From positions 1 to 43,885 of the forward strand of contig JAGCVD010000006.1 of the NCBI GenBank assembly GCA_017962545.1: 43,885 nucleotides of DNA, written 5' to 3'. Positions 4,027-42,293 of this stretch are shown piece after piece (the stretch's first letter is position 1; every line of letters begins with the position of its first letter). The DNA comes from Bacteroidales bacterium. Its GTDB lineage: Bacteria; Bacteroidota; Bacteroidia; Bacteroidales; P3. The position numbers and the translations under genes were made by a program. The notes below the pieces were generated by a model. The model saw nothing but the letters and a program-made list of their open reading frames with translations. It searched no databases and was not told the origin of the DNA.

Positions 4027-4125
4027 TCAAAATATGATAATATATTGATATACAATGCCGTATGCAGGCAAAATCAATCCAAGTAAGTGATACTCAGTAC
4101 TAAAGAGACACCCCCTCTTACTCAT
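4027..4125 (-). CDS. Possible 32-residue peptide upstream of the PqqD cassette
   Basis: An ATG at 4125, preceded by GGCGAGGGGTAGGTG, opens a frame of 32 codons ending in TGA at 4027. The product begins MSKRGCLFSTEYHLLG and ends in a hydrophobic stretch (YGIVYQYIIIF). A small gene directly upstream of pqqD is where a peptide precursor might sit, and the frame contains one Cys and several Ser, Thr and Tyr residues. Against it: the start codon lies inside a 7-base-period array (4113-4140), the base composition is not gene-like, and there is no clear leader/core division. It may be a chance frame. Confidence 0.2.
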   Translation of the reverse strand: MSKRGCLFSTEYHLLGLILPAYGIVYQYIIIF

Positions 4126-4140
4126 CACCTACCCCTCGCC
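4113..4140. repeat. Degenerate heptad array (ACTCATC type), intergenic
   Basis: Four 7-base units in 28 bases: CCCTCTT, then ACTCATC (4120-4126), ACCTACC and CCTCGCC. The ACTCATC unit and its ACCTACC variant resemble the array inside cutC at 42093-42120, so the same repeat word occurs both between and within genes. Confidence 0.5.
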
Positions 4141-4280
4141 TTAAAAACGCCTTATCAAGACTTACTTTTGTAAGTGTTAATCAGGTGTTTGTTTGGTGTT
4201 AATAATGGTTAAAAATAGGGAATATGTTACGTAGGTACCAGTTGGGTTGTAAGAGGGTGGGGAGGTGGCGCAATGTTTTT

Positions 4281-4312
4281 TTTGCGTGGGTGAAAAGTTT
4301 TTCTTATCTTCG
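4281..4312 (+). promoter_or_regulatory. Bacteroides-type promoter of pyrH
   Basis: TTTG (4281-4284) and TATCTTCG (4305-4312, one mismatch to TAnnTTTG) are 20 bases apart. The predicted start is near 4317, leaving a leader of about 57 bases before the pyrH ATG at 4374. This argues against an in-frame upstream start at 4224, which would precede the promoter. Confidence 0.7.
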
Positions 4313-4373
4313 CACAATGGAATGTTGTGCCGATGGTTGGTGCAATCCGTTGTGTGATAATAATTTACAAGGT

Positions 4374-5081
4374 ATGAAATATAGTAGAGTATTGCTTAAA
4401 TTGAGTGGTGAGTCGCTGATGGGCGCTCAGAGCTATGGTATCGACCCTGCGATGCTGACGCAGTATGCCGCCGACATCAAGGCGGTGGTGGAGCGCGGCG
4501 TGCAGGTGGGCATCGTCATCGGCGGCGGCAACATCTTCCGTGGCCTCAGCGGCGCCTCGAAGGGCATGGACCGTGTGCAGGGCGACTATATGGGCATGAT
4601 GGCCACGCTCATCAACAGTATGGCGCTGCAGGCCGAGCTTGAGAAGCAGGGCCTGAAGACCGAACTGCTCGGAGGCCTCGCCATCGAGCCCATCTGCAAG
4701 GCCATGAGCCGCCGCCGTGCGGTGGAGGCCATGCAGGAAGGCCGCGTCGTCATCATTGGCGGCGGCACAGGCAATCCCTTCTTCACCACCGACACCGCGT
4801 CGACGCTCCGCGCCGTGGAGGTACAGGCCGACGTCATCCTCAAGGGCACGCGTGTCGACGGTGTCTACACCGCCGACCCCGAGAAGGACCCCACAGCCAC
4901 CAAGTACCAGACCCTCACCTACAGCGAGGCGCTGGAGAAGAAGCTCAAGATTATGGACCTCACCGCCTTCGCGCTGGCCGAGGACAACAACCTGCCCATC
5001 TATGTCTTCGACATGAACCGTCCGGGCAACCTGCTGCGCGTGGTGGAAGGCGAGAACGTGGGAACGTTAGTAAGTAAATGA
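4374..5081 (+). CDS. pyrH: UMP kinase
   Basis: This 235-residue enzyme phosphorylates UMP to UDP in pyrimidine nucleotide synthesis. It has the amino-acid-kinase fold: KLSGESLMG at 9-17, the glycine loop GGGNIFRG at 50-57, and [12 protein letters not shown] at 129-140, with a normal length for bacterial UMP kinases. Bacterial PyrH is a hexamer regulated by GTP and UTP. The ATG at 4374 was chosen because the family starts [13 protein letters not shown] and the promoter lies downstream of the earlier in-frame start. The next gene is frr, a common pairing, across a 227-base gap holding an inverted-repeat element. Confidence 0.95.
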
Positions 5082-5090
5082 AAATTAATA

Positions 5091-5272
5091 GTTAAGTAGA
5101 CAGTAGTTTTTCACTGGATAAAATTAATTTCAAAGGAGTTCAAAGCCTGCATGCAGGCGGAAGTAGATAAGACGATACATTATGTCTACTGCAAAAAGGC
5201 AATATATCATTTGTCTTAACTACTGCCTGAAGGGCGAGCGAAGCGATAACTTCTTATCTACTTAACTACTAA
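5091..5272 (+). repeat. Intercistronic inverted-repeat element, copy 2 (pyrH-frr)
   Basis: The 5' arm holds AGTTAAGTAGACAGTAG (5091-5107) and, after an A+T-rich spacer and the palindrome GCCTGCATGCAGGC (5147-5160), GAAGTAGATAAGAC. The 3' arm holds TTTGTCTTAACTACTG, the 28-base module shared with copy 1 (5223-5250), and CTTATCTACTTAACTACT. The orientation relative to the flanking genes is the same as in copy 1. The word GTAGATAAG in one arm is matched by CTTATCTAC in the other, so word variants have changed in step with their partners. No open frame was found in it. Confidence 0.7.
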
Positions 5273-5308
5273 AATGGTCAAGTAATAAAACAATCAAGCA
5301 ATCATATC

Positions 5309-5871
<563 letters not shown>

Positions 5872-5872
<1 letters not shown>

Positions 5873-6603
5873 TGCGCATCGTGCGTTTTGACTCGCTGGA
5901 GTCGACAAACAAGTATTGTGAAGCCCTCGACCTCGCTGAGGTGGAGGACTTCACTTGCTATTGGGCTTTGGAGCAGACGGCCGGCATAGGGCAGCGCGGC
6001 AATGTTTGGGCCTCCGCATCAAGGGAAAACCTTACTTTCAGCCTTGTGCTGCACCCCACGTTCCTCCCCGCCGACCGTCAGTTCAAACTGACGGAAGCCC
6101 TCTCGCTGGCTTTGGTCGACGTCCTTAAGGACTTTAAGGACCTTAAAGACCCTAAGGACCTTAAGGTCAAGTGGCCTAATGATATCCATGTCGATGGGAA
6201 GAAGATTTGCGGCACGCTGGTGAGTACGCGCCTCAGCGGCAACGCCATCTCTTCCGCCGTCTGCGGTATCGGCCTCAACGTCAACCAGACGTCCTTCCCC
6301 GACTGGGTGCCCAATCCCACGTCGCTCTCCCTGCTGACAGGGAGGGAATATGAGTTGGAGCCTCTGTTGCGACAGTTACTAGCGTGTATCGAACGAAGGT
6401 ACAATGAATTGAAGGCCGGCCTCGACCCCGAGCCGGAGTATCTGGAGCACCTGCTGAACCTCGGCCTTCCCGCGCGTTATAGATATAATGAAGAGGAGAT
6501 AGAGGCTACCATCACCGGTGTCGACCCACACGGCCGCTTGCTTCTCACCACCTCCGACGGCCGCCGCATTTCCTGCGGCATGAAAGAAATCACCTTGCTT
6601 TAG
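5872..6603 (+). CDS. birA: Biotin-[acetyl-CoA-carboxylase] ligase with a tripeptide-repeat insert
   Basis: This is a 243-residue monofunctional biotin protein ligase: it lacks the N-terminal DNA-binding domain of E. coli BirA. Visible motifs are STNKY (11-15), the biotin-AMP loop GIGQRGNVW (38-46), KWPNDI (100-105) and GKKICGTLV (109-117). Just before KWPNDI, residues 85-98 read KDFKDLKDPKDLK, encoded by a 9-base-period repeat (6124-6168). This appears to lengthen a surface loop compared with typical ligases and leaves the catalytic motifs intact. It attaches biotin to carboxylase carrier domains. The start at 5872 overlaps the frr stop. The stop (TAG 6601-6603) overlaps the stop of the convergent gene (TAA on minus, 6600-6602). 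Confidence 0.92.
6124..6168 (+). repeat. 9-base-period array inside birA
   Basis: Five units of 9 bases with consensus CTTAAGGAC (variants TTTAAGGAC, CTTAAAGAC, CCTAAGGAC, CTTAAGGTC). The period is three codons, so it is read as Asp-(Leu/Phe/Pro)-Lys repeats. The core CCTTAAGG is palindromic, which makes the whole stretch nearly self-complementary. Two related arrays occur in purL. Confidence 0.85.
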
Positions 6604-7911: not shown

Positions 7912-7912
7912 A

Positions 7913-8407
7913 TCAGCGGCTGTTATGCATGATCTTCTTGACGAGGCGGGCGACGACGGCGTCGTATTCCTCTTCGCTGTCGGCACAGAAGACGTAAACG
8001 GCGCGGCTGAGGTAGGAGATACCCATGTAGCAGCTGGCAGCCATATTGATATTTTCCCCTACAACGGGGGCATTCTCGCGGGGGTTGCTGCGGCTGCGGC
8101 GGGCGAAGAGCACCACGTCGCTGCCCTCACGCAGGCTGGCCTGCTGCTCGGGTGCCAGGTCGCCGATATGGAACTCGCGTTTCATCCAATCCCATCCGGC
8201 ATCGTCTTCGGCGGCGATGACGGTGACGTCGACCTTGGCATTGCTGTCAAGGGCGAAGTTGCTGACCGAGGCCACCTTGACGTTGGGATGTGCGGCATAG
8301 CGCTGGTAGAGGTCGGTCTGTGCCGAGACAGCAAACGAAGCGAGCAGCAACATAAGAAAGGGGATTGCTCCTGTAAACCGTAACCCGTAACCCGTAAACT
8401 TTCTCAT
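7913..8407 (-). CDS. Small secreted protein in an ECF sigma operon (DUF4252-like position)
   Basis: 164 residues from the ATG at 8407, which overlaps the stop of the anti-sigma-like gene (ATGA) and so is well supported. The N-terminus is a signal peptide (cleavage near AVSAQ). The mature part starts LYQRYAAHPNVKVASVSNFAL and is alpha/beta-like, with no catalytic motif I recognise. In other Bacteroidota a small exported DUF4252 protein often follows an ECF sigma and its anti-sigma; the position fits, but I do not claim membership from sequence. The first 12 codons are oddly encoded by a 7-base array (8372-8399), giving KFTGYGLRFTG ahead of the hydrophobic core. Confidence 0.7.
   Translation of the reverse strand: MRKFTGYGLRFTGAIPFLMLLLASFAVSAQTDLYQRYAAHPNVKVASVSNFALDSNAKVDVTVIAAEDDAGWDWMKREFHIGDLAPEQQASLREGSDVVLFARRSRSNPRENAPVVGENINMAASCYMGISYLSRAVYVFCADSEEEYDAVVARLVKKIMHNSR
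8372..8399 (-). repeat. Degenerate heptad array (GKTTACG type) in a signal peptide
   Basis: Four consecutive 7-base units on the minus strand: GTTTACG, GGTTACG twice, and GTTTACA. They encode KFTGYGLRFTG in the n-region of the signal peptide of the gene at 7913-8407. Confidence 0.8.
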
Positions 8408-9341: not shown

Positions 9342-9373
9342 AACCTATAGACGAAAAAAGGGTCCCTTTTGGC

Positions 9374-9826
9374 TCACGCGTTAACATTATTTAAGAAAAA
9401 AGGGATGTCGGACAACTGGCGCAGGGTGCGGTTTTGGTAGTCTATCTCGATGATTATCTGTTGTTTTCCGTTGGTGAGCAACAGCAGAGGGACTTGCAGC
9501 ACGGTGTTGTAGCGGCAGGCCTGGTCGCAGACTTTCTGGTTGATGGGCACCTCGGGTTGCTTGCATTCGACAATCATGCGGGGCTTAGCGGTGGTGTCGT
9601 AGAGCACGATGTCGCAGCGGCGCGTCATGCCGTTGACGTTGATGGCGCCCTCGACCTGCATAAGTTCGTAGGGGTAGCCGTAGTGGTTGTGCAGCAGCAG
9701 GAGTGTCTGCTGGCGCACCCACTCCTCGGGTGTCAGCGCCACCCAGCGGTGCCGCACGGGGTCGAGCACCTCGCGGCGTCCGTCTTGTTCCCTTGTCAAG
9801 GGTGTGCTATCACTCTCAATTTTCAA
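9374..9826 (-). CDS. Orphan HsdR N-terminal-like protein with PD-(D/E)XK nuclease fold
   Basis: 150 residues from a TTG at 9826. The sequence resembles the type I restriction enzyme R-protein N-terminal domain. Asp72 in RRCDIVLY and Glu87-Cys-Lys89 in MIVECKQP give the D...ExK pattern, and hydrophobic strands follow (VLQVPLLLLTNGKQQIIIEID). There are no helicase, methylase or specificity genes nearby, so it is not a restriction system. Stand-alone proteins of this kind are common in Bacteroidota, with no known job. The start is unusual: it lies inside a 28-base heptad array (9814-9841), with an in-frame stop just upstream, so TTG (or another non-ATG codon) must be used unless translation starts much later. 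Confidence 0.75.
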   Translation of the reverse strand: MKIESDSTPLTREQDGRREVLDPVRHRWVALTPEEWVRQQTLLLLHNHYGYPYELMQVEGAINVNGMTRRCDIVLYDTTAKPRMIVECKQPEVPINQKVCDQACRYNTVLQVPLLLLTNGKQQIIIEIDYQNRTLRQLSDIPFFLNNVNA

Positions 9827-9841
9827 CTTTCAATATTCAAT
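9814..9841 (-). repeat. Degenerate heptad array (ATTGAAA type) over a start codon
   Basis: Four 7-base units on the minus strand (ATTGAAT, ATTGAAA, GTTGAAA, ATTGAGA), directly between the stop of the TonB receptor gene (9842-9844) and the HsdR-N-like gene, whose TTG start lies in the third unit. Confidence 0.8.
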
Positions 9842-12421
9842 TTAGTAGATGGTGCTTTCGTCTCCACCCTCTTCCTCTTGTTGTTGTGGGCGCTGTTTGA
9901 GTCCGTTGTTGATTTTCCATGAAAAGCCGAGGGTTACCACCGGCGAGAGACGCTTGGCTTTGACCACGCGGTTGAAAGTCTGGCTGTAGGTGGTGTGGCC
10001 CCAGCCGCCGGTGCAGAAGACGTCGCTGACGCGCAGGTTGATGGTGCCTCGTTTTTGGAAGACATCTTTCTTGACCGCCAGGTCGACCCAATAGCCAGGA
10101 TCCATCTTTGTCTGCAAGTCGAGCCATGGCGCCCAGTACTGGCCGCTGAGCTGGATGGTCCAGTCGTCAGGCAGCATCATGAAGGAGCTGAACTTGCCGC
10201 TGGCCTGGAACGAAGAGGTGCTCTGGTTGTGGAGCAACTCGGTGCCTTCGATGTGGCTCTTGTAGAGGTTGACGTTGATGTTGATTTTCCACCACTGGAA
10301 TATCTGCCAGTCGAAGATGAACTCCATGCCGTAGTTGTAGCCTGTGCTGAGGTTGAGGCGTGTAGAGGCGCGGTAGCCGTCGTACTCTGGGTTGTAAGGT
10401 TCCCACCAGGCGTAGCGTGCCACGCTGTCGGCGCACCAGGTGAAGCCGTAATGGGTAATCATATTGTTGGTCTGGCGGTAGTAGAGCGAGGTGAAGAGGT
10501 TGACCTTCTTGATGCCGAGGTTGTAGCTGAGCTCGAAGGCATTGGTGTACTCGGGGTCAAGATTGGGGTTGCCGAAACTCATCTGGTTATCCTCGCGGAT
10601 GTCTATGAATGGGTTGAGGTCCCAGAAATGGGGACGATGGACGCGACGGCTGTAGCTCACTTGTGCGCTCTGCAGGTCGGTGATTTTGTACGACATGTGC
10701 ACCGTGGGGTAGAGCTGCCAGTAGGGTTTGTCGATGGCTGCTGTCTGCGGGTGGTAGAGGTCGCGTCCGTAGATGGAGGCATATTCGCCACGCAGACCTG
10801 CCTGCAGCGAGAGGGCGTCGGTGAGGTTGCCGCCCAGGGTGGCGTAGATGGCATGTACCTGCTGGCGGTAGTTGAAATGGGTGGAAGAGAGTGAGTCGTA
10901 ATAGCCGTAGTAGGTGTAGGAGCCACCCGTGTTGTTGTATATTGTGCGATAATAGTCGGCACACTGGTCGGGCCAGTCCATACGGCCCTCGTAGCCGGTC
11001 TCCAGTCGCCAGCCTTCCTTGCCGAAGAACGAATCCAGCGGCCGCAGCCAGTTGAGCTTGAGGTTCAGCGCCTGGTGGTGGTTCTCGGTGATGCTGCGGC
11101 GGCGGTAGTAGTGGTCGTAGTTGGCCAGTGCGTCGGCATAGGTCTGCTCCTGCAAGCCCTCGCCATGCACCTCGCGGGTGCTGAAGGTGGCGTCGAAGGT
11201 CAGCTCTTCGTCTTTGCGGTCGAACTTGCGTGTGTAGAGCAGGTTGAACGAGTGATTGATGTTATTGTTGTCGCTCGTGGCCGTCTGGAGGTAGTCTAGC
11301 GAGTCGTGATAGAGCAGGTCGGTGGCATAACTGTTGCTGTTGCGCTGACGGTTGCCGCCGCGCAGCTGGTAGGAGAGCAGCAGGCTGTTCTTGTCGTTGA
11401 AGTAGTATTCGCCGCCCACCTTCACGCTACCCATGCGGTTGGGGTTGAGGCCGTACTGCTCGATGGTGTTGTGTGAAACGGGAGCCCCTCCCGTGAGGTA
11501 TTCGATGTCCGACTCGCTTTTGTTGCCGCGCTGGCGCAGGCCGGCGTCAGCATTGAAGAAGAGGTTGTACTTCTCGGTGGTGTAGTTGAGGCTGATGTTG
11601 CCCATGGCGGTGGGGATGAACGAAGGCAGCGAGTCGGGCACCATGAAGGGCAGGGGAGCGCCCACGTTGACGTTCACCACGCCGTTGAGGCCCAGGGCAC
11701 CGGCGGTGCGGTCCTTGAGTTTGATATTGATGATGCCGCTCATGCCCTCGGGGTCGTACTTGGCCGAGGGGTTGGTGATGACCTCCACGTTCTCCACCGT
11801 CGAGGCGGGTATCTGCTCCAGCAGGGTGGCCAGGTCGGAGGCCAGCAGCTCGCTGGGACGGCCGTTGACGAGCACCTTGACGTTTGAGGAACCGCGCAGC
11901 GTCACGTTGCCGTCGTTGTCGATGGCCACGCTGGGCACCTGCTCCAGCACGTCGCTGGCGGTGCCGCCGCCGGCCACGATATTCTTGTCGACGTTGACCA
12001 CGCGCTTGTCGAGCTGGTATTCCACCATCGAGCGCTCGGCCACCACCTCGACGGCCTCCATCAGGGTGGCCTGCGGGTTGATGGCCACCTTGCCGAGGTT
12101 CACCGACGAGTGCTCGGCGCTGAGGGTGACGCTGCTTTTGTAGTACTGCGGCTCGTAGCCCACGAAGGTGATACGCAGCAGGTAGCGCCCATAGGGAGCC
12201 TCAATGCGGAAGCTGCCGTTGCTCTCGGTGACGGTGCCGCCCTTGAGGGTCGAGTCCTTGGGGTTGAGCAGCGCCACAGTGGCATACTCGATATTCTCGC
12301 CCGTGCGGGCATCGACCACACGGCCCCGCACGGTGCCCTGCTGGGCAACAGCCGAATTGAAAAATGAAAAATGAAAAATGAAAATAAATATAGTTACTAC
12401 AATGATCCTTATACTTTTCAT
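9842..12421 (-). CDS. TonB-dependent outer-membrane receptor family protein (outer membrane beta-barrel family)
   Basis: 859 residues. After a signal peptide (cleavage near AVAQQ, residue 27) comes a carboxypeptidase-regulatory-like beta-sandwich (GTVRGRVVDARTGENIEYATVALLN, 29-110). A plug domain follows (GGGTASDVLEQVPSVAIDNDGNVTLRGSSNVKVLVNGRP, about 150-190), then a long barrel with many alternating aromatic strands, ending after KRLSPVVTLGFSWKINNG. No SusD partner follows, so it is not a Sus-type glycan pair; the substrate is unknown. Part of the signal peptide (IFIFHFSFFN) is encoded by a 7-base tandem repeat at 12358-12385. It lies downstream of the PAS gene, across a half copy of the inverted-repeat element. 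Confidence 0.9.
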   Translation of the reverse strand: MKSIRIIVVTIFIFIFHFSFFNSAVAQQGTVRGRVVDARTGENIEYATVALLNPKDSTLKGGTVTESNGSFRIEAPYGRYLLRITFVGYEPQYYKSSVTLSAEHSSVNLGKVAINPQATLMEAVEVVAERSMVEYQLDKRVVNVDKNIVAGGGTASDVLEQVPSVAIDNDGNVTLRGSSNVKVLVNGRPSELLASDLATLLEQIPASTVENVEVITNPSAKYDPEGMSGIINIKLKDRTAGALGLNGVVNVNVGAPLPFMVPDSLPSFIPTAMGNISLNYTTEKYNLFFNADAGLRQRGNKSESDIEYLTGGAPVSHNTIEQYGLNPNRMGSVKVGGEYYFNDKNSLLLSYQLRGGNRQRNSNSYATDLLYHDSLDYLQTATSDNNNINHSFNLLYTRKFDRKDEELTFDATFSTREVHGEGLQEQTYADALANYDHYYRRRSITENHHQALNLKLNWLRPLDSFFGKEGWRLETGYEGRMDWPDQCADYYRTIYNNTGGSYTYYGYYDSLSSTHFNYRQQVHAIYATLGGNLTDALSLQAGLRGEYASIYGRDLYHPQTAAIDKPYWQLYPTVHMSYKITDLQSAQVSYSRRVHRPHFWDLNPFIDIREDNQMSFGNPNLDPEYTNAFELSYNLGIKKVNLFTSLYYRQTNNMITHYGFTWCADSVARYAWWEPYNPEYDGYRASTRLNLSTGYNYGMEFIFDWQIFQWWKININVNLYKSHIEGTELLHNQSTSSFQASGKFSSFMMLPDDWTIQLSGQYWAPWLDLQTKMDPGYWVDLAVKKDVFQKRGTINLRVSDVFCTGGWGHTTYSQTFNRVVKAKRLSPVVTLGFSWKINNGLKQRPQQQEEEGGDESTIY
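12358..12385 (-). repeat. Heptad array (TTTTTCA type) in a signal peptide
   Basis: Three TTTTTCA units plus an ATTTTCA unit on the minus strand, 28 bases in all, read as the Phe/His/Ser-rich hydrophobic core of the TonB receptor's signal peptide. The composition is far more A+T rich than the rest of the gene. Confidence 0.8.
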
Positions 12422-12423
12422 TT

Positions 12424-12462
12424 GTCTTAATTCCTTTATCTCCTGTCTCCTTATCTTCTTAC
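12424..12462 (-). repeat. Half copy of the inverted-repeat element (PAS-TonB receptor)
   Basis: On the minus strand this region reads as 8-base-like words (AAGAAGAT, AAGGAGAC, AGGAGATA, AAGGAATT) ending TTAAGACAA directly against the receptor's ATG. It matches only the 5' arm of the full elements; no complementary arm is present. Confidence 0.55.
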
Positions 12463-12464
12463 AA

Positions 12465-12824: not shown

Positions 12825-12841
12825 TGCCTGTTCTATTCTTT

Positions 12842-12946
12842 GTAGTTAAGTAGTTAAGAAGAAAAGTAGTTAAGACAAATGTACCATCGTGTGCGCGACA
12901 GGTGCTATTGTCTTAACTACTTAACTACTGTCTCCTTAACTACTAA
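12842..12946 (-). repeat. Intercistronic inverted-repeat element, copy 3 (ptb-PAS)
   Basis: This is the cleanest copy. On the plus strand, GTAGTTAAGACAA (12866-12878) is matched exactly by TTGTCTTAACTAC (12908-12920), with ACC/GGT closing pairs nearer the loop (12883-12885 with 12901-12903) and a G+C-rich loop of 15 bases. Outside this core both arms carry further AGTTAAG / CTTAACT words. A stem of this size should fold in RNA or as a DNA cruciform. The orientation relative to the genes matches copies 1 and 2. Confidence 0.8.
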
Positions 12947-12952
12947 AGGAAA

Positions 12953-21000: not shown

Positions 21001-21794
21001 TTGTGGTCGGCGAGGTACTGCTGGAAAGCGCCCTCGATGAGGGGACGGTAGAAGCCGTCGTCGAACTTCACATCCTTCAGCTCGGTGGCGAAGGTGGTGT
21101 GACGGCAGTGGTCGCTCCAGTAGGTGTCGAGCACGCGAATCTCGGTCATCGTGGGGTCGCGGTGCTCCTCGTCGTGGAAGTAGCGCTGGATATGCTTGAA
21201 GTCGGCGAAGGTCATGGCCAGGCCGAGGGAGTCATAAAGGTCTTTGAAGTCCTTAAGGTCCTTAGGGTCGTTAAGGTCCTTGTCCTTAAAACCATCAAAA
21301 ACAATCACGTCGGCGGGTTCGTCGAAGTGCTCCTCCAGCGTGGCGGGCTTGGGACCGTCGGCACGGCGGCTGTCGACAGGGTTCACACAGTGCTTCACTA
21401 CAGCCTGACGCTGCTCGTCACCCAGCTGGCCGCTGATGACGTAGGTCGTGGCGCTCTTGATGATGGGCTCTTCGCTGTCGTTGAGCAGTTTGACGCACTG
21501 CTCGGCCGAGTCGGCACGCTGGTCGTATTGGCCAGGGAGATACTCCACCGTGAAGCAGAAGTCTTCCGCCTTGTGCGGGAACTCCTCCTCGTAGACGTCG
21601 TCCACCGGCGGCTCGCTGAAGACCGTCGTCAGGGCGGTCTGGAAGGTGGTGTCGCTCACATTCTCGACGTCGTAGCGTATCAGTACGCGCACCGCCTCGG
21701 CCTCGATGCCGAGGTAGTCGCGCATCTCGTCGTTCAGTTCCTTGGCCTTGACGGCGTAGGGGGCTCTCTTTTCAACGTAGATTCTTCTTACCAT
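18027..21794 (-). CDS. purL: Phosphoribosylformylglycinamidine synthase, single-chain, with three repeat inserts
   Basis: 1255 residues; one chain carries the N-terminal, two PurM-like and glutaminase domains. It converts FGAR, glutamine and ATP to FGAM in purine synthesis. Readable landmarks are TYWSDHCRHTTF near 228-239, KNETHNHPTEIEPFGGAATCLGG near 330-350, and the glutaminase domain from VFIPAFPGTNCEYD (about 1000) with the nucleophile Cys1096 in GICNGFQ and HGEGRF. The N-terminus (RRIYVEKRAPYAVKAKEL) resembles the form found in clostridia and streptococci more than the Proteobacterial type. Three low-complexity segments, each encoded by a 9-base-period repeat, are unusual: about 168-186 (DLNDPKDLKDFKD), 626-639 (KPDNPESPETPEN) and 966-981 (DLKDLKDSMGLKGFKD). 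The second and third lie in domain linkers. It follows the plsC-like gene by 14 bases. Confidence 0.95.
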   Translation of the reverse strand: MVRRIYVEKRAPYAVKAKELNDEMRDYLGIEAEAVRVLIRYDVENVSDTTFQTALTTVFSEPPVDDVYEEEFPHKAEDFCFTVEYLPGQYDQRADSAEQCVKLLNDSEEPIIKSATTYVISGQLGDEQRQAVVKHCVNPVDSRRADGPKPATLEEHFDEPADVIVFDGFKDKDLNDPKDLKDFKDLYDSLGLAMTFADFKHIQRYFHDEEHRDPTMTEIRVLDTYWSDHCRHTTFATELKDVKFDDGFYRPLIEGAFQQYLADHKEQYAGRTDKFVCLMDIGTLAAKRLKKAGILDDQEPSDEINACSIVVPVVINGNKEEWLINFKNETHNHPTEIEPFGGAATCLGGCIRDPLSGRTYVYQAMRVTGAADPTKPLNETLPGKLPQRKIVTTAAHGYSSYGNQIGLATGLVNEVYHPNYVAKRMEIGAVIAAAPRRAVKRLTSDPGDIIILLGGRTGRDGIGGATGASKSHTTKSLTTCGAEVQKGNAPTERKIQRLFRREEVSCLIKKCNDFGAGGVSVAIGELADGLQINLDRVPKKYAGLDGTELAISESQERMAVVVDPKDVDQMLKYADEENLEATVVATVTAEPRMVISWRGKEIVNLSRRFIDTNGAHQETTVSVTMPGKPDNPESPETPENIRSLWLRTLADLNVCSQKGLVEMFDSSIGARSVFMPYGGKYQLSPTQAMAATLPLLDGHCDLVTFMSYGLDPYLMSWSPFHGAAWNVVNSVAKIAAAGGDASRVRLTFQEYFKKLGNDPYRWGEPFAALLGAYNAQMGLKLPAIGGKDSMSGTFNDIDVPPTLCSFAVGTGDVHHVVSTELKSAGSRLMLLDVKEDQYGMPLYDDVMDQYAALRKAILADQVKSSFVVGFGGLIEAVSKMAFGNKLGVRLTSANDLTARHYGNIVVEVAENITADQLPFRCTEIGRVIDEPAFYVGDERIDLEEALAAWQKTLEGVFPTRTTSAGDLKDLKDSMGLKGFKDIHLCSHKVAKPHVFIPAFPGTNCEYDSARAFNRAGAESEIIVFRNQNGQQIRESVDAYVRAINNSQIVMIPGGFSAGDEPEGSAKFITSVFRNPRITDAVMELLNKRDGLMLGICNGFQALVKLGLVPYGEIRPQAADAPTLTFNTIGRHQSKIAYTRISSNLSPWLRKAELGGVYAIPISHGEGRFVAPQEWLDRLFKNGQVATQYCNLEGIPTMDEEYNMNGSYMAIEGITSPDGRVLGKMGHSERRTEWSALNVNFRDDQQIFESGVEYFK
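18851..18899 (-). repeat. 9-base-period array inside purL, linker before glutaminase domain
   Basis: Minus-strand units of the type GACCTTAAG and GGCCTTAAA, read as DLKDLKD and GLKGFKD. It resembles the birA array, with CCTTAAGG cores. Confidence 0.75.
19878..19919 (-). repeat. 9-base-period array inside purL, between the two synthase halves
   Basis: Minus-strand units CCGGATAAT, CCGGAATCT, CCGGAAACT and CCAGAAAAC, read as Pro-(Asp/Glu)-Xaa repeats. This is a different repeat word from the birA type, with the same period. Confidence 0.8.
21235..21292 (-). repeat. 9-base-period array inside purL, N-terminal region
   Basis: Minus-strand units GACCTTAAC, GACCCTAAG, GACCTTAAG, GACTTCAAA and GACCTTTAT, read as DLNDPKDLKDFKDLY, just before the conserved GLAM segment. 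Confidence 0.85.
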
Positions 21795-22473: not shown

Positions 22474-22535
22474 GGTATTTCTTTGGTATTTCTTTGGGAA
22501 AAAGCAAAGAAATACCAAAGAAATACCAAAGAAAT
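22474..22535. repeat. Hairpin made of tandem 11-base units (GGTATTTCTTT)
   Basis: The left arm GGTATTTCTTT occurs twice (22474-22495), ending in GGG. A short A-rich loop follows, and the right arm carries the complement AAAGAAATACC twice, plus a third partial unit. About 23 base pairs match perfectly. It sits between the divergent plsC-like gene and tRNA-Ser, so it is not placed as a terminator for either. No open frame was found. It shares the style (tandem words in inverted arms) of the AGTTAAG elements but uses a different word. Confidence 0.8.
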
Positions 22536-24009: not shown

Positions 24010-24636
24010 ATGATTGACAACAAGGCGATATTCAATATCAGTTACGGCCTCTTCGTGCTCGTGGCGCGGCAGGGCGACAAAGACAACGCCTGCATCATCA
24101 ACGTGGCTCAGCAGGTCACCAGCGACCCGTTGCAGCTGATGATATGCGTCAACAAGCAGAACCTGACGCACGACATGGTGTTGCGCACCTTGAAGTTCAA
24201 TCTCTGCCCGCTCAGCGAGGAAGCCACCATGAAGCCCTTCCAGCATTTTGGCTTCCAGAGCGGCAAGACGGTGGACAAATTCGCCGAGTGCGAGACCGAG
24301 CTCCGCACGGAGAATGGCTTGCGGTATCTGCCCAAGTATATCAACTCGGTCATCAGCTGTGTTGTCACCAAGAGCATCGACCTCGGTACCCACACCATGT
24401 TTATCGCCCGTGTGATGGAGGCCCAGGTGCTCACCGATAGCCCCTCGATTACCTATGCCTACTACCAGCAGCACATCAAGCCTAAACCAGTGGCCAGTGG
24501 TCGGCAGCCAGAGACCAGCAAGAAGCGCTGGGTCTGTGAGGTCTGCGGTTATGTCTATGAGGGCGACGAAGTGCCCGACGATTTCGTCTGCCCCTGGTGC
24601 AAGCACGGCAAGAGCGACTTCAAGTTGATGGAATAA
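24010..24636 (+). CDS. Flavin reductase-rubredoxin fusion (high-molecular-weight rubredoxin type)
   Basis: 208 residues. Residues 1-155 are a flavin reductase-like FMN-binding domain (NISYGLFVLVARQGDKDNACIINVAQQVTSDP; QHFGFQSGKTVDKF). Residues 173-208 are a rubredoxin with two Cys pairs, [12 protein letters not shown] and CPWCKHGK, that hold one iron. Such fusions pass electrons from NAD(P)H or a flavin partner to oxygen- and peroxide-reducing enzymes in anaerobes, which fits ferritin and rubrerythrin nearby. The linker (about 160-171) is encoded by a 7-base-period array (24487-24521). It starts two bases after the serS stop and is probably co-transcribed. Confidence 0.9.
   Translation: MIDNKAIFNISYGLFVLVARQGDKDNACIINVAQQVTSDPLQLMICVNKQNLTHDMVLRTLKFNLCPLSEEATMKPFQHFGFQSGKTVDKFAECETELRTENGLRYLPKYINSVISCVVTKSIDLGTHTMFIARVMEAQVLTDSPSITYAYYQQHIKPKPVASGRQPETSKKRWVCEVCGYVYEGDEVPDDFVCPWCKHGKSDFKLME
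24487..24521 (+). repeat. Degenerate heptad array (CCAGTGG type) in a domain linker
   Basis: Five 7-base units: CCAGTGG twice, TCGGCAG, CCAGAGA and CCAGCAA. They are read as VASGRQPETSK between the flavin and rubredoxin domains. Confidence 0.7.
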
Positions 24637-27229: not shown

Positions 27230-27340
27230 GAAGACAGAAGAAAAGAAGACAGGAGATAAGACGGTGGCATGCTTGCACTCAAATGATGACATAATGGTAT
27301 TGCCTTATCTCCTTAACTCCTGACTCCTTAACTCCTAAAC
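27230..27340 (+). repeat. Intercistronic inverted-repeat element, copy 4 (rbr-lpxK), reversed orientation
   Basis: The left arm is built from AGAAGAC words and GGAGATAAGAC. The right arm has GGTATTGCCTTATCTCC and then repeats of CTTAACTCC (CTCCTTAACTCCTGACTCCTTAACTCC region, 27308-27336). Read on minus, the right arm equals the 5' arm of copy 1 with GTAGTTAAG replaced by GGAGTTAAG, so the copy is inverted relative to the genes compared with copies 1-3. Confidence 0.6.
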
Positions 27341-33191: not shown

Positions 33192-36100
33192 ATGGGTCGT
33201 CTCAGGTGTTACATATCGCTGATGCTGTGCCTGTTGTTTTCTTCTTTCGCTATGGCGCAGGAGGCGGGGAATGCGTCGCTGGAGCTTACGGAAAGTTCCG
33301 ACAGCACCTTTCAGGTGACATTCCATATGGGCAATATAACCCTCGTGCCAGCCGCCGATGGATTTGTAGGCTTGGCTGCTGAGGGAATGGTGAATCTTGC
33401 GTCACACGAAGGATTTCCGTCATTGCCGCAGGCCAGCCGTCTTATAGCATTGCCGCGCGGCGCTGAGTTGCGACTGGAGCGGTGGCAGGAAGGCGACGCC
33501 GAAGTGTTGGCGTTGTCGGAAGGCAATGTGTTGTCGCCTTGGCAAGGAGCTTCGGTAAAGGATGCCGACCCTATGGCGGTGGAACCCGACAAGGAGGCCT
33601 ATGCCTGCGATACTTTCGTGCATAGTGGCGCCCCTATTGTGGTGGAGAACCTTGGTGTGATGGGCGACCGTCAGATATTCCGTATCACGGTGCATCCTGT
33701 GGTTTACAACCCTGTTGGCGGCAAGGTGATGCTATGCAAGTCCCTGTCGGCGACATTGTCCACGAATCATTTGTCCTCTATCCTTGATGCCCAGCCCTCG
33801 CGACGTTACCTTATTGTGTCGCGTCCTCAGTTTCGCGAGGGTTTGCAGCCCTTTGTGCGTTGGAAACGACAAGAAGGCTATGAGGTGACGGAGCTGTATG
33901 CCGACACGCATCTGCGCGACAGCGTCAAGGCGTTGGTGAGTTCGGAGTTCGGAATTCAGAGTTCGGAGTTATGGCCGCGTTATGTGCTGCTGGTGGGCGA
34001 CGTGTCGCAGTTGCAGGCTTTTCTTGGTACCACGCATCCCTCTGGGTTGGGCAACCATGTCACCGACCTCTACTATGTTGAGCACACGGGCGACTATCTG
34101 CCTGACGCGCTGCTGGGCCGCTGGCCGGTGAACGACACCGCCGAGTTGCGCGCTGTTGTCGAGAAGACGCTGGCTTACGAGCAAGGCCTGGGTCTTGACA
34201 CAGCCCGTCTGCGGCGCGTGCTGCTGGTGGCTGGTGCCGAGAGTCAGGAGCCGGCACCCGTGACCACTAACGGGCAGGTGAACTATGTGAGCCGTGAAGT
34301 CAAGTTGGCGCACCCTGCCATCGATACCCTCTGTTACTACAATCCGGCTTCCAGTGGCCAACGTGCCGCCATACTGAACGACATTCGGCAAGGTGCTGCA
34401 TGGCTTAACTATACAGCTCATTGTTCCACAGCAGGCTGGACCAACCCCTCGGTCACTTTCTCCAGTATCGACACCATAGACAATCCACAGCCGTTGCTGT
34501 ATATCAACAACTGTTGCTTGAGCAATGCCTTCGACGGCACCTGTTTCGGAGAACAGCTGCTGCGCAAGGCCGGTGGTGGCGCCATCGGCGTTATCGGAGC
34601 CACCAACTCGACCCTGTGGAACGAAGACTATTATTGGTCGGTGGGACCCAAGTATCCTTTCAGCCTGGAGCCCGTCTATGAGGCAAGTCGTCAGGGCGCT
34701 TTCGACAGATGGGTGGGACGTGGCGACGACGTGCAGACGCTGGGGGCCTTGCTGGCAGCGGGTAATTTGGCGGTGACAGCTTTCGGCTCGCCGTATGACA
34801 AGTTCTACTGGGAAATCTACTGTCTGCTGGGCGACCCCAGTCTGATGCCATGGACGGGTGCGCCGCAGGCTATTGAGCTGCATGCCACCCACGGCATCCA
34901 TGACGGCGATGGCACGCTGTACCTTGGCGGCACTGCCGGTGCCACCGTCACAGCCATGCAGCACGACACGATTATCGGTGTCGGTAACATCAATGCCAAC
35001 GGTTTGTTGGCTCTCGGTTTGACACGCTGCCTGGATACCACGCCGCTCGTCGTCACTGCCACAGGCTACGGCTTTAGGCCGCGTGTCGACACACTGACGG
35101 TTGAGACCGTGTCGGGTATCGGCGTGGCGCTGCGTGAGGTGGCGGTCACAGACAGCCTGCTGACCTGCCGTGTGGAGAATGTGGGCACGGTGCCGCTCTG
35201 TGGGCTGCGGGTGGTGCTCAGTCAACTGGAGGTTGACAGTACGGTCGACGCCCTTTTGACGGAACAGCAAGCGGTGGTCGACACCCTGCTGCCGCACCAG
35301 AGCAGCAATGTCTCGCTGCCCGTGCAGGTGGAGGCCATCGGGCAATATCCCTATTGGCAGGCTGAATTGTATGCCTGGGACAGCACCGAAGGAATGCTCT
35401 GCAGCCTTATGTTGCGGCAGTCGATGGAAGTCGCCTATCCTACGGCAACATTCCGTTTGCTGGAACTTTCGGGTAGTGAAGCCCACAGGCTGCTGCCACG
35501 TCACGAATACACCCTTGAGACTACGGTAGAAGGCACTGCCGATGTCGTCGATATGGCCATTACCGCCCTTCCCACGGGCGACACGCTGCACTCTCCGTTC
35601 TCCACCCCCGACACATTGACGCATCTGCATCTTGAGGCATCGTTGTGGCTGGGCAACCATAGAAAGGACTACAATTACTGGCTGGTGGGTGGCGAACGGC
35701 AGGACAGCTTCGAAGAAGGTCTCGCCAACTATCCTTGGCAGGGTGGGGGAACCCTGCCCTGGCAGCTGGACAGCATTATGCCTCGCAGTGGCCGCTACAG
35801 TGTGCGCAGTGGCGTCATAGGCCACCGGCAGACATCGGACCTCGTACTCGAGGTGTTTCTGCCGCAGGCGGACACCCTCAGCTACTGGGCACGTGTCTCG
35901 AGTGAGGAGCGTTACGACAAACTGCTCTTTTCGGTCGATGGTGTAAATCGTGGCAATGCGCGATGGGGCGAGAGCGACTGGAAACGCTACACGACGGTGA
36001 TTGATGCCGGGCGACACATACTGCGTTGGCGCTATGTGAAGGATGAAAGCGGTTCGGAAGGCTGCGATTGTGCCTGGATAGACGATGTGAGCCTGCCATT

Positions 36101-36395: not shown

Positions 36396-36399
36396 AGAT

Positions 36400-37200: not shown

Positions 37201-37233
37201 TAGTCAGACAGTTGCGATAACATACAGTTGAGT

Positions 37234-38738: not shown

Positions 38739-38940
38739 GCTTATGCTGGCGCTGATAGCCTTCTACCGCACCTGTATCTCACCCTTGCTGCCTCCCACCT
38801 GTCGTTATACGCCCACGTGTTCGCAGTATGCCCAGGAGGCTATCCGCAAGTACGGCCCTTTCAAAGGAGGCTGGCTCGCCCTCCGGCGTATTCTCCGCTG
38901 CCACCCTTTCGGCGGCTCCGGCTACGACCCCGTACCTTGA
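38698..38940 (+). CDS. yidD: Membrane protein insertion efficiency factor YidD
   Basis: 80 residues with the full family pattern: an amphipathic N-terminus ([42 protein letters not shown]) with conserved Cys residues, [30 protein letters not shown] at the end. It helps YidC insert membrane proteins. It overlaps the rnpA gene by 41 bases and is followed by a separate promoter for pepD. Confidence 0.94.
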
Positions 38941-38957
38941 CCTCTGGAAAATAATAT

Positions 38958-38988
38958 TTTGCCATTTCGTTTTTATTGTGTATCTTTG
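38958..38988 (+). promoter_or_regulatory. Bacteroides-type promoter of pepD
   Basis: TTTG (38958-38961), 19 bases, TATCTTTG (38981-38988): a perfect consensus. The start is predicted near 38993, about 26 bases before the ATG at 39019. Confidence 0.85.
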
Positions 38989-39018
38989 CAGTCGGAAATC
39001 AATCAAATACACAATACG

Positions 39019-40485: not shown

Positions 40486-40505
40486 AAAGCCCTTGCGCTG
40501 TTCGT

Positions 40506-41447
40506 TCAGTCGAACATGACGCCAGGGTTCATGGTTGAGGGAGAACTCCAATCGATGCCGTACTTCGCCAGCACGGCACGTTTGACGGACCAGTATTCGA
40601 AGCAGAAGCCCATGCAGCGAGATTCCTCCTTGAGGCGTCGGTCGCACTCTTTCTCAACCTTGTAGATAATCTCTTCCCACTGGGGCGTTCTCTCCACGGG
40701 GTCGAACAAGAGGTGCGCATTGACATAGTCGACCCACCATTCCATGGTCACGGTCGGGTCGATATAGAAGTCAAGCTCGTTCTGTATGCGGTCGGCTTCC
40801 GGCACACCGAGGACGTGTGAGGAGTCGATGGGTTCGTCGTCGGCCGTCTGTGCTTTCATGGCCAGTTTCCTGAGTTGCAGGAATTCCAGACACAGCCTGG
40901 GTACATCACGGGTGTTCAGAAGGTCTTCCAGGAATATGGCGTCGCAGCAGGCCATGATGCCGGTAGCGTCGATATGCTGTCCTTCGATGGGGAAGGATTT
41001 GTTTAATAACTCATACATCTCGCGGGCAAGCGGGATGTTTTTCCAGACGGGATGCCAATCCTCCTTGGCGTTCTTCCTCATTCTCTTGATGAGGGTGAGA
41101 ATCCTTTTGACGGTCTTCTCCTCGTCGGTGGGCGTCTGTTTCTCTTTTATACTCACAAGGTAACTCTCCGCCTCATACAGATAGGGATTGTCCATTCGGA
41201 TTACTGGCGAATGCCAGATATGTCCGGGAGTTACGGTGACAGGCTCGTCGTCATCGAAGAACCGGAACACCAGCTTGCCTTCTTTGAACGAAATAACATC
41301 GACCCTCATCTCTTTTCCGAGGATCTCGAACAAGTTGTAGCCGGGGACGAGCTTCTCTGTGGCGACCTTTCTCATGTAGGTTCCGTTGTTGGCAATTCCC
41401 ATGTCGTTCGTTTGCCAACTGCATCCAACTTTTACTTCATATTCCAT
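40506..41447 (-). CDS. Conserved-looking protein of unknown function
   Basis: 313 residues, soluble, no signal peptide. The N-terminal 85 residues (MEYEVKVGCSWQTNDMGIANNGTY ... VTPGHIWHSPVI) look like a small beta domain. A basic helical segment follows (KRILTLIKRMRKNAKEDWHPVWKNIPLAREMYELL). The rest is helical, ending ECDRRLKEESRCMGFCFEYWSVKRAVLAKYGIDWSSP, with several Cys and many Trp. No known motif. A very good promoter (41537-41568) precedes it, about 90 bases before the ATG. Its position between pepD and cutC gives no hint. Confidence 0.65.
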   Translation of the reverse strand: MEYEVKVGCSWQTNDMGIANNGTYMRKVATEKLVPGYNLFEILGKEMRVDVISFKEGKLVFRFFDDDEPVTVTPGHIWHSPVIRMDNPYLYEAESYLVSIKEKQTPTDEEKTVKRILTLIKRMRKNAKEDWHPVWKNIPLAREMYELLNKSFPIEGQHIDATGIMACCDAIFLEDLLNTRDVPRLCLEFLQLRKLAMKAQTADDEPIDSSHVLGVPEADRIQNELDFYIDPTVTMEWWVDYVNAHLLFDPVERTPQWEEIIYKVEKECDRRLKEESRCMGFCFEYWSVKRAVLAKYGIDWSSPSTMNPGVMFD

Positions 41448-41536
41448 AGGTTGAGGGTGGGTTTTGTTTGCTTATTGTTGTGGTAAAAGGTTGTGGGATA
41501 GTGTGTAATGGGGTGGTGGTGAAACAATGTCAGTTG

Positions 41537-41568
41537 CAAATATATTGATATTTTCCGATGTGTGCAAA
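41537..41568 (-). promoter_or_regulatory. Bacteroides-type promoter of the unknown gene at 40506-41447
   Basis: On minus, TTTG (41565-41568), 20 bases, TATATTTG (41537-41544). The leader of about 85 bases is G/C-poor on one side and CA-rich, with no clear structure. It overlaps the upstream part of the cutC promoter. Confidence 0.8.
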
Positions 41569-41576
41569 TTATTTTG

Positions 41577-41584
41577 TATTTTTG
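41577..41584 (+). promoter_or_regulatory. -7 box of cutC, directly before the start codon
   Basis: TATTTTTG ends four bases before the cutC ATG (41589). If transcription starts where it does at other such boxes, the message has almost no leader. Confidence 0.65.
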
Positions 41585-41588
41585 CAAT

Positions 41589-42293
41589 ATGATTAATGTT
41601 GAGATTTGCACGCCGTCGTTGGCATCGGCACAGGCGGCCAAAGAGGGTGGCGCACAGCGTATTGAGTTGTGCCGCAACCTCGAGTGTGGTGGTCTGACAC
41701 CTGCAGACGATGACATCGCCTATTGCGTGCATAAGTTGGGCTTGCTCACCCATGTGCTGGTGCGGCCCCGAGCAGGCAATTTCTGCAACACTCCCGACGA
41801 GGTGGCGGAGATAGAGCGCACCATTGTGCGCTGCAAGGCGCTGGGAGCTCACGCTGTGGTGATAGGCTTCCTCACAGCCGACGCCCGCATCGATGTGGAT
41901 CTTACGCGTCGCATGGTGCAGCTGGCAGCCCCCATGGAGGTGACCTTCCACCGCGCTTTCGACGAGGCCTGTCAAGACCCGTTGGAGGCCCTGCAAGCCA
42001 TCATCTCGTGCGGTTGCACACGCCTGCTTACTTCCGGCCAAGCTCCCACGGCCCTCGAAGGCGCTGATGTAATCAAGCATTTGGTTGATTATACTCATCA
42101 TTCATCATCTACCACTCACCGCTTCCAAATACTGGCCGGCAGTGGCGTGACGCCTTCCAATGTGTGCGAGTTGATAGCGAAGACGGGAGTGCACGAGGTC
42201 CATGGCTCCTGCAAGACCACGCTGCCTGACGGCACGGTGCAGACCGACGCCGTACAGGTGCGCCAGTTGATTGATAATATTAATTCGCTATGA
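41589..42293 (+). CDS. cutC: CutC family protein (historically copper homeostasis)
   Basis: 234 residues from the ATG at 41589 (MINVEICTPSLASAQAAKEGGAQRIELCRNLECGGLTPADDDIAY), the standard start. The TIM-barrel sequence continues LVRPRAGNFCNTPDEVAEIER, GAHAVVIGFLTADARIDVD, MEVTFHRAFDEACQDPLEAL, GCTRLLTSGQAPTALEG, FQILAGSGVTPSNV, and the last EVHGSC. The copper role in E. coli has been questioned, so the true function is open. About residues 168-178 (YTHHSSSTTHRF) are encoded by a heptad array, in a surface loop before the strand RFQILAGSGV. The stop overlaps the start of the next gene. Confidence 0.92.
   Translation: MINVEICTPSLASAQAAKEGGAQRIELCRNLECGGLTPADDDIAYCVHKLGLLTHVLVRPRAGNFCNTPDEVAEIERTIVRCKALGAHAVVIGFLTADARIDVDLTRRMVQLAAPMEVTFHRAFDEACQDPLEALQAIISCGCTRLLTSGQAPTALEGADVIKHLVDYTHHSSSTTHRFQILAGSGVTPSNVCELIAKTGVHEVHGSCKTTLPDGTVQTDAVQVRQLIDNINSL
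42093..42120 (+). repeat. Degenerate heptad array (ACTCATC type) inside cutC
   Basis: Four 7-base units: ACTCATC, ATTCATC, ATCTACC and ACTCACC, read as THHSSSTTH. It shares the word with the intergenic array at 4113-4140. Confidence 0.75.

What the first reader, a model, noticed from the sequence alone, without database searches (positions are those of the whole stretch)
4113..42120. A class of degenerate 4 x 7-base tandem arrays, each with its own heptamer, many of them translated
At 4113, 8372, 9814, 12358, 33941 and 42093 the sequence shows exactly 28 bases made of four 7-base units, and at 24487 five units. Units within an array differ by one to three bases, and the heptamer differs between arrays. 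Six of the seven arrays are read as protein, in signal peptides, at a start codon, in a domain linker or in loops. Since 28 is not a multiple of 3, simple insertion would shift the frame, so they either arose in place or came with extra bases. Heptanucleotide repeats (STRR) are known from cyanobacteria, but I know of no described counterpart of this form in Bacteroidales. A shared mechanism (slippage, a template-directed process or a mobile hairpin) is inference.
Basis: partly seen in the sequence, partly recalled or inferred. Interest (0 to 1): 0.72.

Follow-up and report, generated by a model that had tools for sequence, protein, structure and literature searches.

The report
Genome-specific heptamer arrays inside genes
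A gut bacterium and its sister species carry many short tandem repeats, usually four or five copies of a seven-base word, at gene ends and even inside housekeeping genes, and different species favour different words, which hints at an unexplained process that spreads a word between unlinked places in a genome.

Summary
The class is real, though only four of the seven listed arrays stand (8372, 9814, 12358, 33941); 42093 is borderline, 24487 and 4113 are at chance level. In 787 kb of this genome 58 heptamer arrays pass a strict cut-off (74/Mb), against 8/Mb in other families of the order and none in 150 kb of E. coli. About half are translated, nearly always on a stop-free strand; most others lie within 20 bp of gene ends, mainly 3'. 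Lengths peak at 28-32 bp. "Each with its own heptamer" is wrong: 64 arrays form 16 unit clusters; four hold 45. Favoured units differ between genomes: TTCGGAG here, GAGTGGA in sister G012, GCTTGATT in G022 and some others. At one place in fabG these three genomes each carry an array in a word abundant in that genome; 15 of 19 compared genes have none. Of 44 site comparisons, 34 lack an array in the relative. Best reading: long simple sequence repeats with fast turnover, kept where tolerated, whose units also spread between loci by an unknown route. Nearest known: GGGAATC arrays of Xanthomonas. A new variant of a known kind; strain-level activity was not testable.

The parts
8372..8399 (.). heptamer array TGTAAAC CGTAACC CGTAACC CGTAAAC beside a conserved ATG on the - strand; probably read as the start of a signal peptide
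   Evidence: 18 of 21 period-7 matches; ATG kept in 8 of 8 aligned relatives; L032 and L034 carry other heptamer-like runs there (by eye), L075, L033 and L039 only 7-8 bases
9814..9841 (.). heptamer array TCTCAAT TTTCAAC TTTCAAT ATTCAAT between an HSDR_N gene and an outer-membrane receptor gene
   Evidence: 17 of 21; 7 of 9 aligned relatives have 5 bases here instead of 28
12358..12385 (.). heptamer array TGAAAAA x4, read on the - strand in the apparent signal peptide of a TonB-dependent receptor-like protein
   Evidence: 20 of 21; relative L033 has a TGAAAAT array of the same length and register; the other 10 aligned relatives have none, by eye
33938..33970 (.). heptamer array GAGTTCG (TTCGGAG family) translated inside a Peptidase_C25 domain
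   Evidence: 17 of 21; domain; none of 12 aligned relatives has an array, by eye; their segment is 22-31 bases
42093..42120 (.). borderline heptamer run ACTCATC in a CutC-family gene
   Evidence: 14 of 21; 7 such peaks in the window against 2.15 expected; 2 of 12 aligned relatives have a non-repeat segment of the same 28 bases
24487..24521 (.). claimed 5 x 7 array in a flavin reductase/rubredoxin linker: not distinguishable from chance
   Evidence: 12 of 21 at best; 29 such peaks observed, 24.9 expected
4113..4140 (.). claimed 4 x 7 array: not supported
   Evidence: 9 of 21; such peaks are no commoner than in shuffles
6123..6166 (.). 9-mer array (CTTAAGGAC family) in birA directly before the KWPND motif; relatives carry heptamer arrays at the same place
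21237..21281 (.). 9-mer array of the same family (AAGGTCCTT) inside a long gene
232..251 (-). octamer array GTAGGTAA (TTAACTAC family), possible left arm of an inverted pair
331..363 (+). octamer array CTTAACTA, possible right arm of the pair
5247..5270 (+). octamer array at the end of a dispersed intergenic element (parts of window 5083-5275 match C2, C12, C18 and C42)
12842..12874 (-). octamer array GTAGTTAA, left arm of an inverted pair
12912..12944 (+). octamer array CTTAACTA, right arm of the pair
27303..27340 (+). octamer array CCTTAACT, same family
22474..22535 (.). 11-mer hairpin: GGTATTTCTTT x2 facing CAAAGAAATAC x3 between divergent genes

Best explanation
The window arrays belong to a genus-wide population of long simple sequence repeats with a preferred unit of 7 bases and a preferred size of 4-5 units. 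Shown: they are far above chance; they lie in genes on a stop-free strand or close to gene ends; they come and go between sister species; at birA, where arrays persist, the unit differs between species while the length mostly stays; and each genome favours a few units that are shared by many unlinked sites. Inferred: arrays start and grow by strand slippage or a similar copying error during replication or repair; selection removes those that break a reading frame; and new or existing arrays take their unit from other arrays in the same genome, by ectopic template switching or short-patch conversion, which gives each genome its own dialect. No function is needed, and none was found.
For: Abundance: 58 heptamer arrays (score 14 or more) in 787 kb here, 114 in 1,192 kb of G012, 35 in 1,269 kb of the 80 hisS loci; 2 in 243 kb of 16 other families; 0 in 150 kb of E. 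coli. Coding nulls: 0.0 against 30 (own), 0.0-0.4 against 71 (G012). Size: own counts for 1.6-2.0, 2.0-2.4, 2.4-3.0, 3.0-3.5 and 3.5-4.2 extra units (bins of unequal width) are 6, 7, 14, 19, 22, and in G012 13, 9, 8, 45, 29, where periods 5, 6, 9, 10, 12 and 13 mainly fall; period 11 in G012 shows a lesser rise. Frame: sense strand of the unit free of stops in 27 of 29 (own) and 63 of 70 (G012) coding arrays; of intergenic arrays only 3 of 35 and 2 of 51 have units open on both strands. Edges: 22 of 32 and 31 of 42 intergenic arrays lie within 20 bp of a gene end (random placement 17% and 10%), mostly 3' (17 of 22, 23 of 31). Turnover: of 44 site comparisons 34 show no array in the best relative, 7 another unit or period, 3 the same unit. 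Slippage: an 8-base unit gained or lost and a scrambled heptamer array between L056 and L072 with 98-99% identical flanks; birA of G012 is 7 bases shorter than in L032 and L075 and is the only one of 28 measurable loci whose two sides are in different frames. Dialect (matches in own / G012 / G022): TTCGGAG 43/0/3, GAGTGGA 0/65/5, GCTTGATT 4/4/52; the fabG arrays of these genomes are TTCGGAA, GAGTGGC and GCTTGATT. birA: 15 of 32 loci carry an array; 10 of these 15 have the same 24-residue length but differing units.
Against: The inter-locus copying step is inferred from unit sharing alone; no event was caught, no enzyme was found, and selection for a genome-specific binding site would also share units. 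G001 has the TTCGGA-type fabG array although that word has only 3 matches in its genome. GCTTGATT is not private to G022 (G014 195, G002 57, G019 47). The reversed control for GAGTGGA is high in G002 (54 against 63) and exceeds the match in G022 (29 against 5); the reversed word is itself a heptamer repeat there. Coding arrays sometimes stand where relatives have a non-repeat segment of about equal length (33941 within 6 bases, 42093 equal in two relatives; birA 24 residues also in 5 loci without an array), which slippage alone does not predict. MutS-family genes are present (4 matches), so a plain repair defect is not indicated. All genomes are drafts, one per species; the G012 birA shift could be an assembly error.
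Confidence: 0.55

Rival explanations
1. Purely local slippage: every array arose from its own local seed by 7-base slippage and homogenised in place; no traffic between loci.
For: Unit number changes by one unit; units differ at a constant length in birA; heptamers are the commonest 5-11-base repeats in many bacteria and polymerase slippage has been proposed (Mrazek 2007 as cited in PMC4679880, passages). Ends of this genome's AACTCCG arrays are not clearly fixed (start phase p 0.055, end phase p 0.44, 13 arrays).
Against: 64 arrays share units: 284 array pairs within one mismatch against a mean of 81 (max 111) for letter-shuffled units; TTCGGAG 43 here and 0 in G012, ACCCACT 110 in G012 and 1 here, in genomes of like G+C. 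fabG gains of 27 and 33 bases are not multiples of 7 or 8.
Confidence: 0.2
2. Mobile palindromic elements: arrays are whole or half copies of short hairpin elements spread by a transposase, like Rickettsia palindromic elements or MITEs.
For: ACCCACT in G012 has fixed ends (start phase p 3e-17, end phase p 2e-11, 30 arrays) and inverted pairs with a loop of about 14-20 bases, also in genes; octamer arrays form inverted pairs and 11-mer arrays form hairpins.
Against: This genome's heptamer families show no shared flanks by eye, only weak flank k-mers and weakly fixed ends at best (the strongest are AAGAATT start p 0.003 and AAAATTG end p 0.005). No Y1_Tnp and no RVT_1 match in G000, nor in G006, G008 and G009, which have 49-289 AAATTGA matches, though these are incomplete drafts; other transposases were not searched.
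Confidence: 0.12
3. Selected sites: the unit is a recognition word (uptake signal, nucleoid or RNA-binding protein) and genome dialects follow the specificity of that protein.
For: Genome-favoured words and clustering at 3' gene ends; a cold-shock protein can bind heptamer repeats (PMC4679880, passages).
Against: Several unrelated units coexist in each genome; arrays are degenerate; half are inside genes; most sites are not shared with the relative compared.
Confidence: 0.1
4. Contingency (phase-variable) loci: unit gain or loss switches genes off and on.
For: 12358 sits in the apparent signal peptide of an outer-membrane receptor, 8372 beside a start codon; birA of G012 is out of frame by one 7-base unit.
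Against: Arrays are short and mostly imperfect; coding arrays are only weakly enriched in the first 100 bases of genes (4 observed, 2.3 expected; 11 against 6.8 in G012); they lie in housekeeping genes such as fabG and birA.
Confidence: 0.05

Closest known systems
GGGAATC heptamer arrays of Xanthomonas (PMC4692102; one section and passages read)
   Same: 186 and 183 dispersed arrays per genome, four units the commonest, degenerate, on average 28 nt from the next 5' gene, 70 and 75 inverted pairs, length and sequence vary between two species
   Different: There one G-rich unit, 7-11% intragenic, and most sites shared by the two species; here several unit families, about half intragenic and in frame, favoured units differ between sister species, and most sites are not shared
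TAACTGA direct repeats of Beggiatoaceae, some Cyanobacteria and five Bacteroidetes (PMC4679880; abstract, passages and one section)
   Same: Heptamers, mostly few units (2-6 in one genome, up to 43 elsewhere), many sets in a genome, present in some Bacteroidetes
   Different: One fixed unit shared across phyla, mostly intergenic, often just upstream of start codons
Heptanucleotide long simple sequence repeats (Mrazek 2007, as cited in PMC4679880) and cyanobacterial STRR (recalled)
   Same: Preferred 7-base unit; slippage proposed
   Different: Nothing on genome-favoured words at a shared codon in what was read here
Rickettsia palindromic elements (PMC10969869, passages)
   Same: Short repeats inserted in frame in unrelated metabolic genes
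   Different: About 150 bp palindromes with a conserved peptide; here about 30-base tandem arrays without conserved flanks in this genome
Minisatellite within a MITE of Porphyromonas gingivalis (PMC4596501; search listing only)
   Same: Tandem repeat within an inverted-repeat element, like the octamer and 11-mer hairpins; Porphyromonas is in Bacteroidales (recalled)
   Different: Not compared in detail; one element, not a class of heptamers

Membership tests
Heptanucleotide long simple sequence repeats (LSSR) | tandem array of a 7-base unit beyond chance | tested here: met
   4 of 7 listed arrays; genome sample far above shuffles
Heptanucleotide long simple sequence repeats (LSSR) | unit number varies between close relatives | tested here: inconclusive
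   one-unit changes at an octamer array and at the birA heptamer array of G012, scrambling at one heptamer array; between species only, no strain data
Xanthomonas GGGAATC arrays | unit GGGAATC or GGGANTN | tested here: not met
   none of the 64 listed arrays has this unit; the large clusters are AAAATTG, AACTCCG, AAAGGTT and AAGAATT
Xanthomonas GGGAATC arrays | mostly four units, near the 3' end of a gene | tested here: met
   modal 28-32 bp; 17 of 22 and 23 of 31 gene-edge arrays at 3' ends; but about half of all arrays are intragenic
TAACTGA repeats | unit TAACTGA | tested here: not met
   not among the 64 listed arrays; nearest seen by eye is AAACTGA
Mobile palindromic element (RPE or MITE) | defined ends and shared flanks among copies | tested here: not met
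   not in this genome's heptamer families; fixed ends are met for ACCCACT in G012
Mobile palindromic element (RPE or MITE) | target-site duplication and a mobilising enzyme | not tested
   only Y1_Tnp and RVT_1 were searched; neither matches in G000
Phase-variable contingency locus | length variants within a population | not testable with these tools
   no reads and one genome per species

The most novel reading that the evidence does not exclude
Genomes of this genus run an inter-locus writing or conversion process that spreads a favoured 7- or 8-base word, as arrays of about 30 bases, into permissive sites, including in frame at the same place of housekeeping genes in different species, so that unlinked arrays evolve in concert within a genome and differ between genomes.
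Probability: 0.35. Interest if true: 0.85.

Novelty: new variant of a known kind. Interest (0 to 1): 0.62.

Why it matters
Why bacteria favour 7-base repeats has been left at 'perhaps polymerase slippage'. This genus offers many sister genomes in which arrays appear, vanish and change their unit at known codons, with a preferred size of four to five units and genome-favoured words. That makes origin, spread and turnover directly testable. It also shows that housekeeping enzymes such as FabG and BirA carry repeat-encoded peptide segments, a simple source of protein variation.

Tried and rejected
Chance: rejected for four arrays and for the class, accepted for 4113 and 24487. Reverse transcriptase or Y1 transposase as a necessary cause: no match to either in G000, G006, G008 or G009; draft genomes, so not excluded. 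Shared flanks: no strong k-mer in this genome. Single origin of the fabG arrays: holding the four array-bearing genes together is rejected on the fabG gene tree without the array columns (p-AU 0.019), but that tree is poorly resolved (2 of 16 inner branches starred, bootstrap not settled). A mutS loss: not seen. The first fabG alignment placed the gap differently (8 against 29 bases, and put the G022 array in the flank), and the first birA alignment drew in a wrong segment for L264; the protein rows and one search are used instead. A passing thought that the GCTTGATT match on G019 contig 74 is the birA array was dropped. Literature: the listed (capped) hits of searches named no report of such arrays in rumen Bacteroidales; only open-licence papers are held and most hits were seen as listing lines. 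Sampling bias: the stretches of this genome were chosen largely from contigs with octamer hits, so octamer densities are inflated; heptamer densities should be less affected. Gene limits come from my own codon-usage gene finder, not a standard annotation. The 44 site comparisons count two sites from both sides (fabG, and one gene on C27), so they are not all independent.


Full report
What was checked. The window is one whole contig (C21) of a draft genome of 1.95 Mb, 81% complete. The 80 best of 192 hisS loci found in named genomes are Bacteroidales or Bacteroidetes drafts (one titled Bacteroidaceae, one 'bacterium P3'), mostly from ruminant gut samples, some from horse faeces, so the organism is most likely a gut, probably rumen, Bacteroidales species. 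Of the seven arrays listed, four are well beyond chance, one is borderline, and two are at chance level.

Is it a class? Yes. In 436 kb of this genome (20 stretches and the window) I found 36 period-7 arrays of score 14 or more, against 0 in an order-3 shuffle. With 787 kb the count is 58 (74/Mb). In the sister genome G012 it is 114 in 1,192 kb (96/Mb) and in the 80 hisS loci 35 in 1,269 kb (28/Mb). In 243 kb from 16 other families of the order it is 2 (8/Mb; that sample has only 39% G+C), and in 150 kb of E. coli 0. In genes, 30 arrays of score 13 or more stand against 0.0 after codon shuffling and 0.0 after synonymous resampling. Units of 8, 9 and 11 bases also occur (25, 14 and 19 in 787 kb); 5, 6, 10, 12 and 13 hardly (0, 1, 3, 5, 0). 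My stretches were chosen largely from contigs with octamer hits, so the octamer density is too high.

Size. For period 7 the number of arrays rises towards 4-5 units (own: 6, 7, 14, 19, 22 in bins from 1.6 to 4.2 extra units; G012: 13, 9, 8, 45, 29; bins of unequal width), where most other periods fall; period 11 in G012 also rises somewhat. In G012 41 of 121 arrays are exactly 30 or 31 bp; in this genome 32 of 64 are 28-32 bp. A slippage process with a preferred length, or a fixed-size product, could give this; I cannot tell which.

Place. By my own gene calls, 32 of 64 arrays lie more than half inside genes. Of arrays wholly inside genes, the sense strand of the unit is free of stops in 27 of 29 (own) and 63 of 70 (G012). 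Intergenic arrays have units with a stop on at least one strand in 32 of 35 and 49 of 51. Of intergenic arrays with a gene on each side, 22 of 32 and 31 of 42 lie within 20 bp of a gene end, against 17% and 10% for random placement, mostly at 3' ends (17 of 22, 23 of 31). This pattern is what one expects if arrays arise widely and selection removes harmful ones.

Units. The 64 arrays fall into 16 clusters within one mismatch. AAAATTG (18), AACTCCG (13), AAAGGTT (8) and AAGAATT (6) hold 45. Pairs of arrays with nearly the same unit number 284, against a mean of 81 and a maximum of 111 when unit letters are shuffled. Favoured units differ between genomes. Matches with up to 2 mismatches in 25 genomes of the genus and 16 of other families (overlapping matches, not arrays): TTCGGAG x3, own 43, three others 3 each, none elsewhere. 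ACCCACT x3, G012 110, G023 38, G019 21, G002 9, own 1, 13 genus genomes in all, other families 0. AAATTGA x3 is found in 20 of 25 genus genomes (up to 289) and in 5 of 16 others with 1-3 matches. GCTTGATT (22 bases), G014 195, G002 57, G022 52, G019 47, own 4, G012 4. GAGTGGA x3, G007 156, G019 90, G012 65, G002 63, own 0; the reversed control is high in G002 (54) and G022 (29), because the reversed word is itself a repeat there. The other reversed controls are low next to the large counts; exceptions are G014 (12 against 8), G023 (15 against 54), G036 (4 against 1) and G040 (38 against 3) and G002 (7 against 9).

Same site, different word. In fabG (identified), 52 of 59 genus genomes have a match; 30 loci were returned, 29 besides our own were used, and 18 of these could be compared, with own added. 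Of these 19 genes 4 carry an array between the conserved EL and (K/H)AKGY; the other 15 have five residues there. The array-bearing genes are own and G001 (TTCGGAA-type unit, +27 bases), G012 (GAGTGGC, +27) and G022 (octamer GCTTGATT, +33). For own, G012 and G022 the word is abundant in the same genome and rare in the other two. G001 is the exception: it has the TTCGGA-type array with only 3 matches of that word in its genome. One clade for the four is rejected (p-AU 0.019), though the gene tree is poorly resolved, so several gains, or gain followed by losses and unit change, are both open.

birA. In 32 loci (31 genomes; L032 and L260 are one genome) 15 have an array right before the KWPND motif: 9-mers in own, G002 and G073, heptamers of differing sequence in the others. 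Of the 15, 10 have the same 24 residues from the LT motif to KW; five loci without a called array have 24 as well. One gene is out of frame: in G012 the array is 7 bases shorter than in L032 and L075 and the two sides of the gene are in different frames, alone among 28 loci where this could be read; the motif was not matched in 3 of 31. That is one heptamer unit, either a slip or an assembly error. At 8372 two relatives carry other heptamer-like runs by eye and others nothing; at 12358 one relative has the array with another base at one unit position.

Turnover. Of 107 array clusters in G012, 24 found an orthologous site, and of 63 here, 20. In these 44 comparisons (two sites seen from both sides) the best relative has no array at 34, another unit or period at 7, and the same unit at 3. 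Where it is absent, the array genome is longer by 3-123 bases at 27, equal at 2, and shorter at 5. Between L056 and L072 an octamer array differs by one 8-base unit and a heptamer array of 61-75 bases is scrambled while flanks are 98-99% identical. One genome per species is held, so strain-level change was not testable.

Mechanism. Best supported: slippage-type birth and growth, selection against harmful sites, homogenisation within arrays, plus spread of a genome's words between loci. The spread is inferred from word sharing, and its agent is unknown. A transposase-borne hairpin could explain ACCCACT in G012, where 30 arrays share start phase (p 3e-17) and end phase (p 2e-11) and often face an inverted partner, but not this genome's heptamers. 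No RVT_1 and no Y1_Tnp match was found here. MutS-family genes are present.

Compared with what is known. Xanthomonas GGGAATC arrays match in number, in the four-unit majority, in nearness to the upstream gene and in inverted pairs, but are one word and 7-11% intragenic (PMC4692102). TAACTGA repeats occur in five Bacteroidetes (PMC4679880). Rickettsia palindromic elements insert in frame but are longer and carry a conserved peptide (PMC10969869). The present case is therefore a new variant of a known kind: many words, half intragenic, genome-favoured, and different at shared places.

Noticed in passing
window 22474-22535: 11-mer hairpin made of facing arrays (GGTATTTCTTT and CAAAGAAATAC); sister copies in the same genome, mostly in gaps between divergent genes.
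   Followed up: partly
L143:10004-10088, L146:9946-10030, L163:16486-16570 and others in G012: About 25 near-perfect palindromes of 81-85 bases built of 11-mers, with matching outer arms (CCTCCGCCATTTTA and its complement): a dispersed element in the sister species.
   Followed up: no
L254 (birA of G012), L162:17443-17464: birA of G012 is out of frame by one heptamer unit of its array; it may be a real slip or an assembly error.
   Followed up: partly
window 232-363 and 12842-12944: Octamer arrays (TTAACTAC family) in inverted pairs about 40-80 bases apart; 87 matches (up to 2 mismatches) in the whole genome.
   Followed up: partly
window 5083-5275: Parts of the pyrH-frr gap match copies on contigs C2, C12, C18 and C42 at 84-93% identity: a dispersed intergenic element.
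   Followed up: no
L128:4397-4666: A higher-order repeat of about 49 bases that contains octamer arrays.
   Followed up: no
L085:9637-9707 and L098:20052-20121: 9-mer arrays at the same site in two species with different units (GTCCGACCA and ACTCCGAGT).
   Followed up: no
L017, L029, L123, L130, L132, L140 (11-mer GGGTCGGTCGA): An 11-mer direct-repeat family, often in divergent promoter gaps; two copies share left flanks (CTGAAAATCAT.TCGGTG); regulator sites or an element.
   Followed up: no
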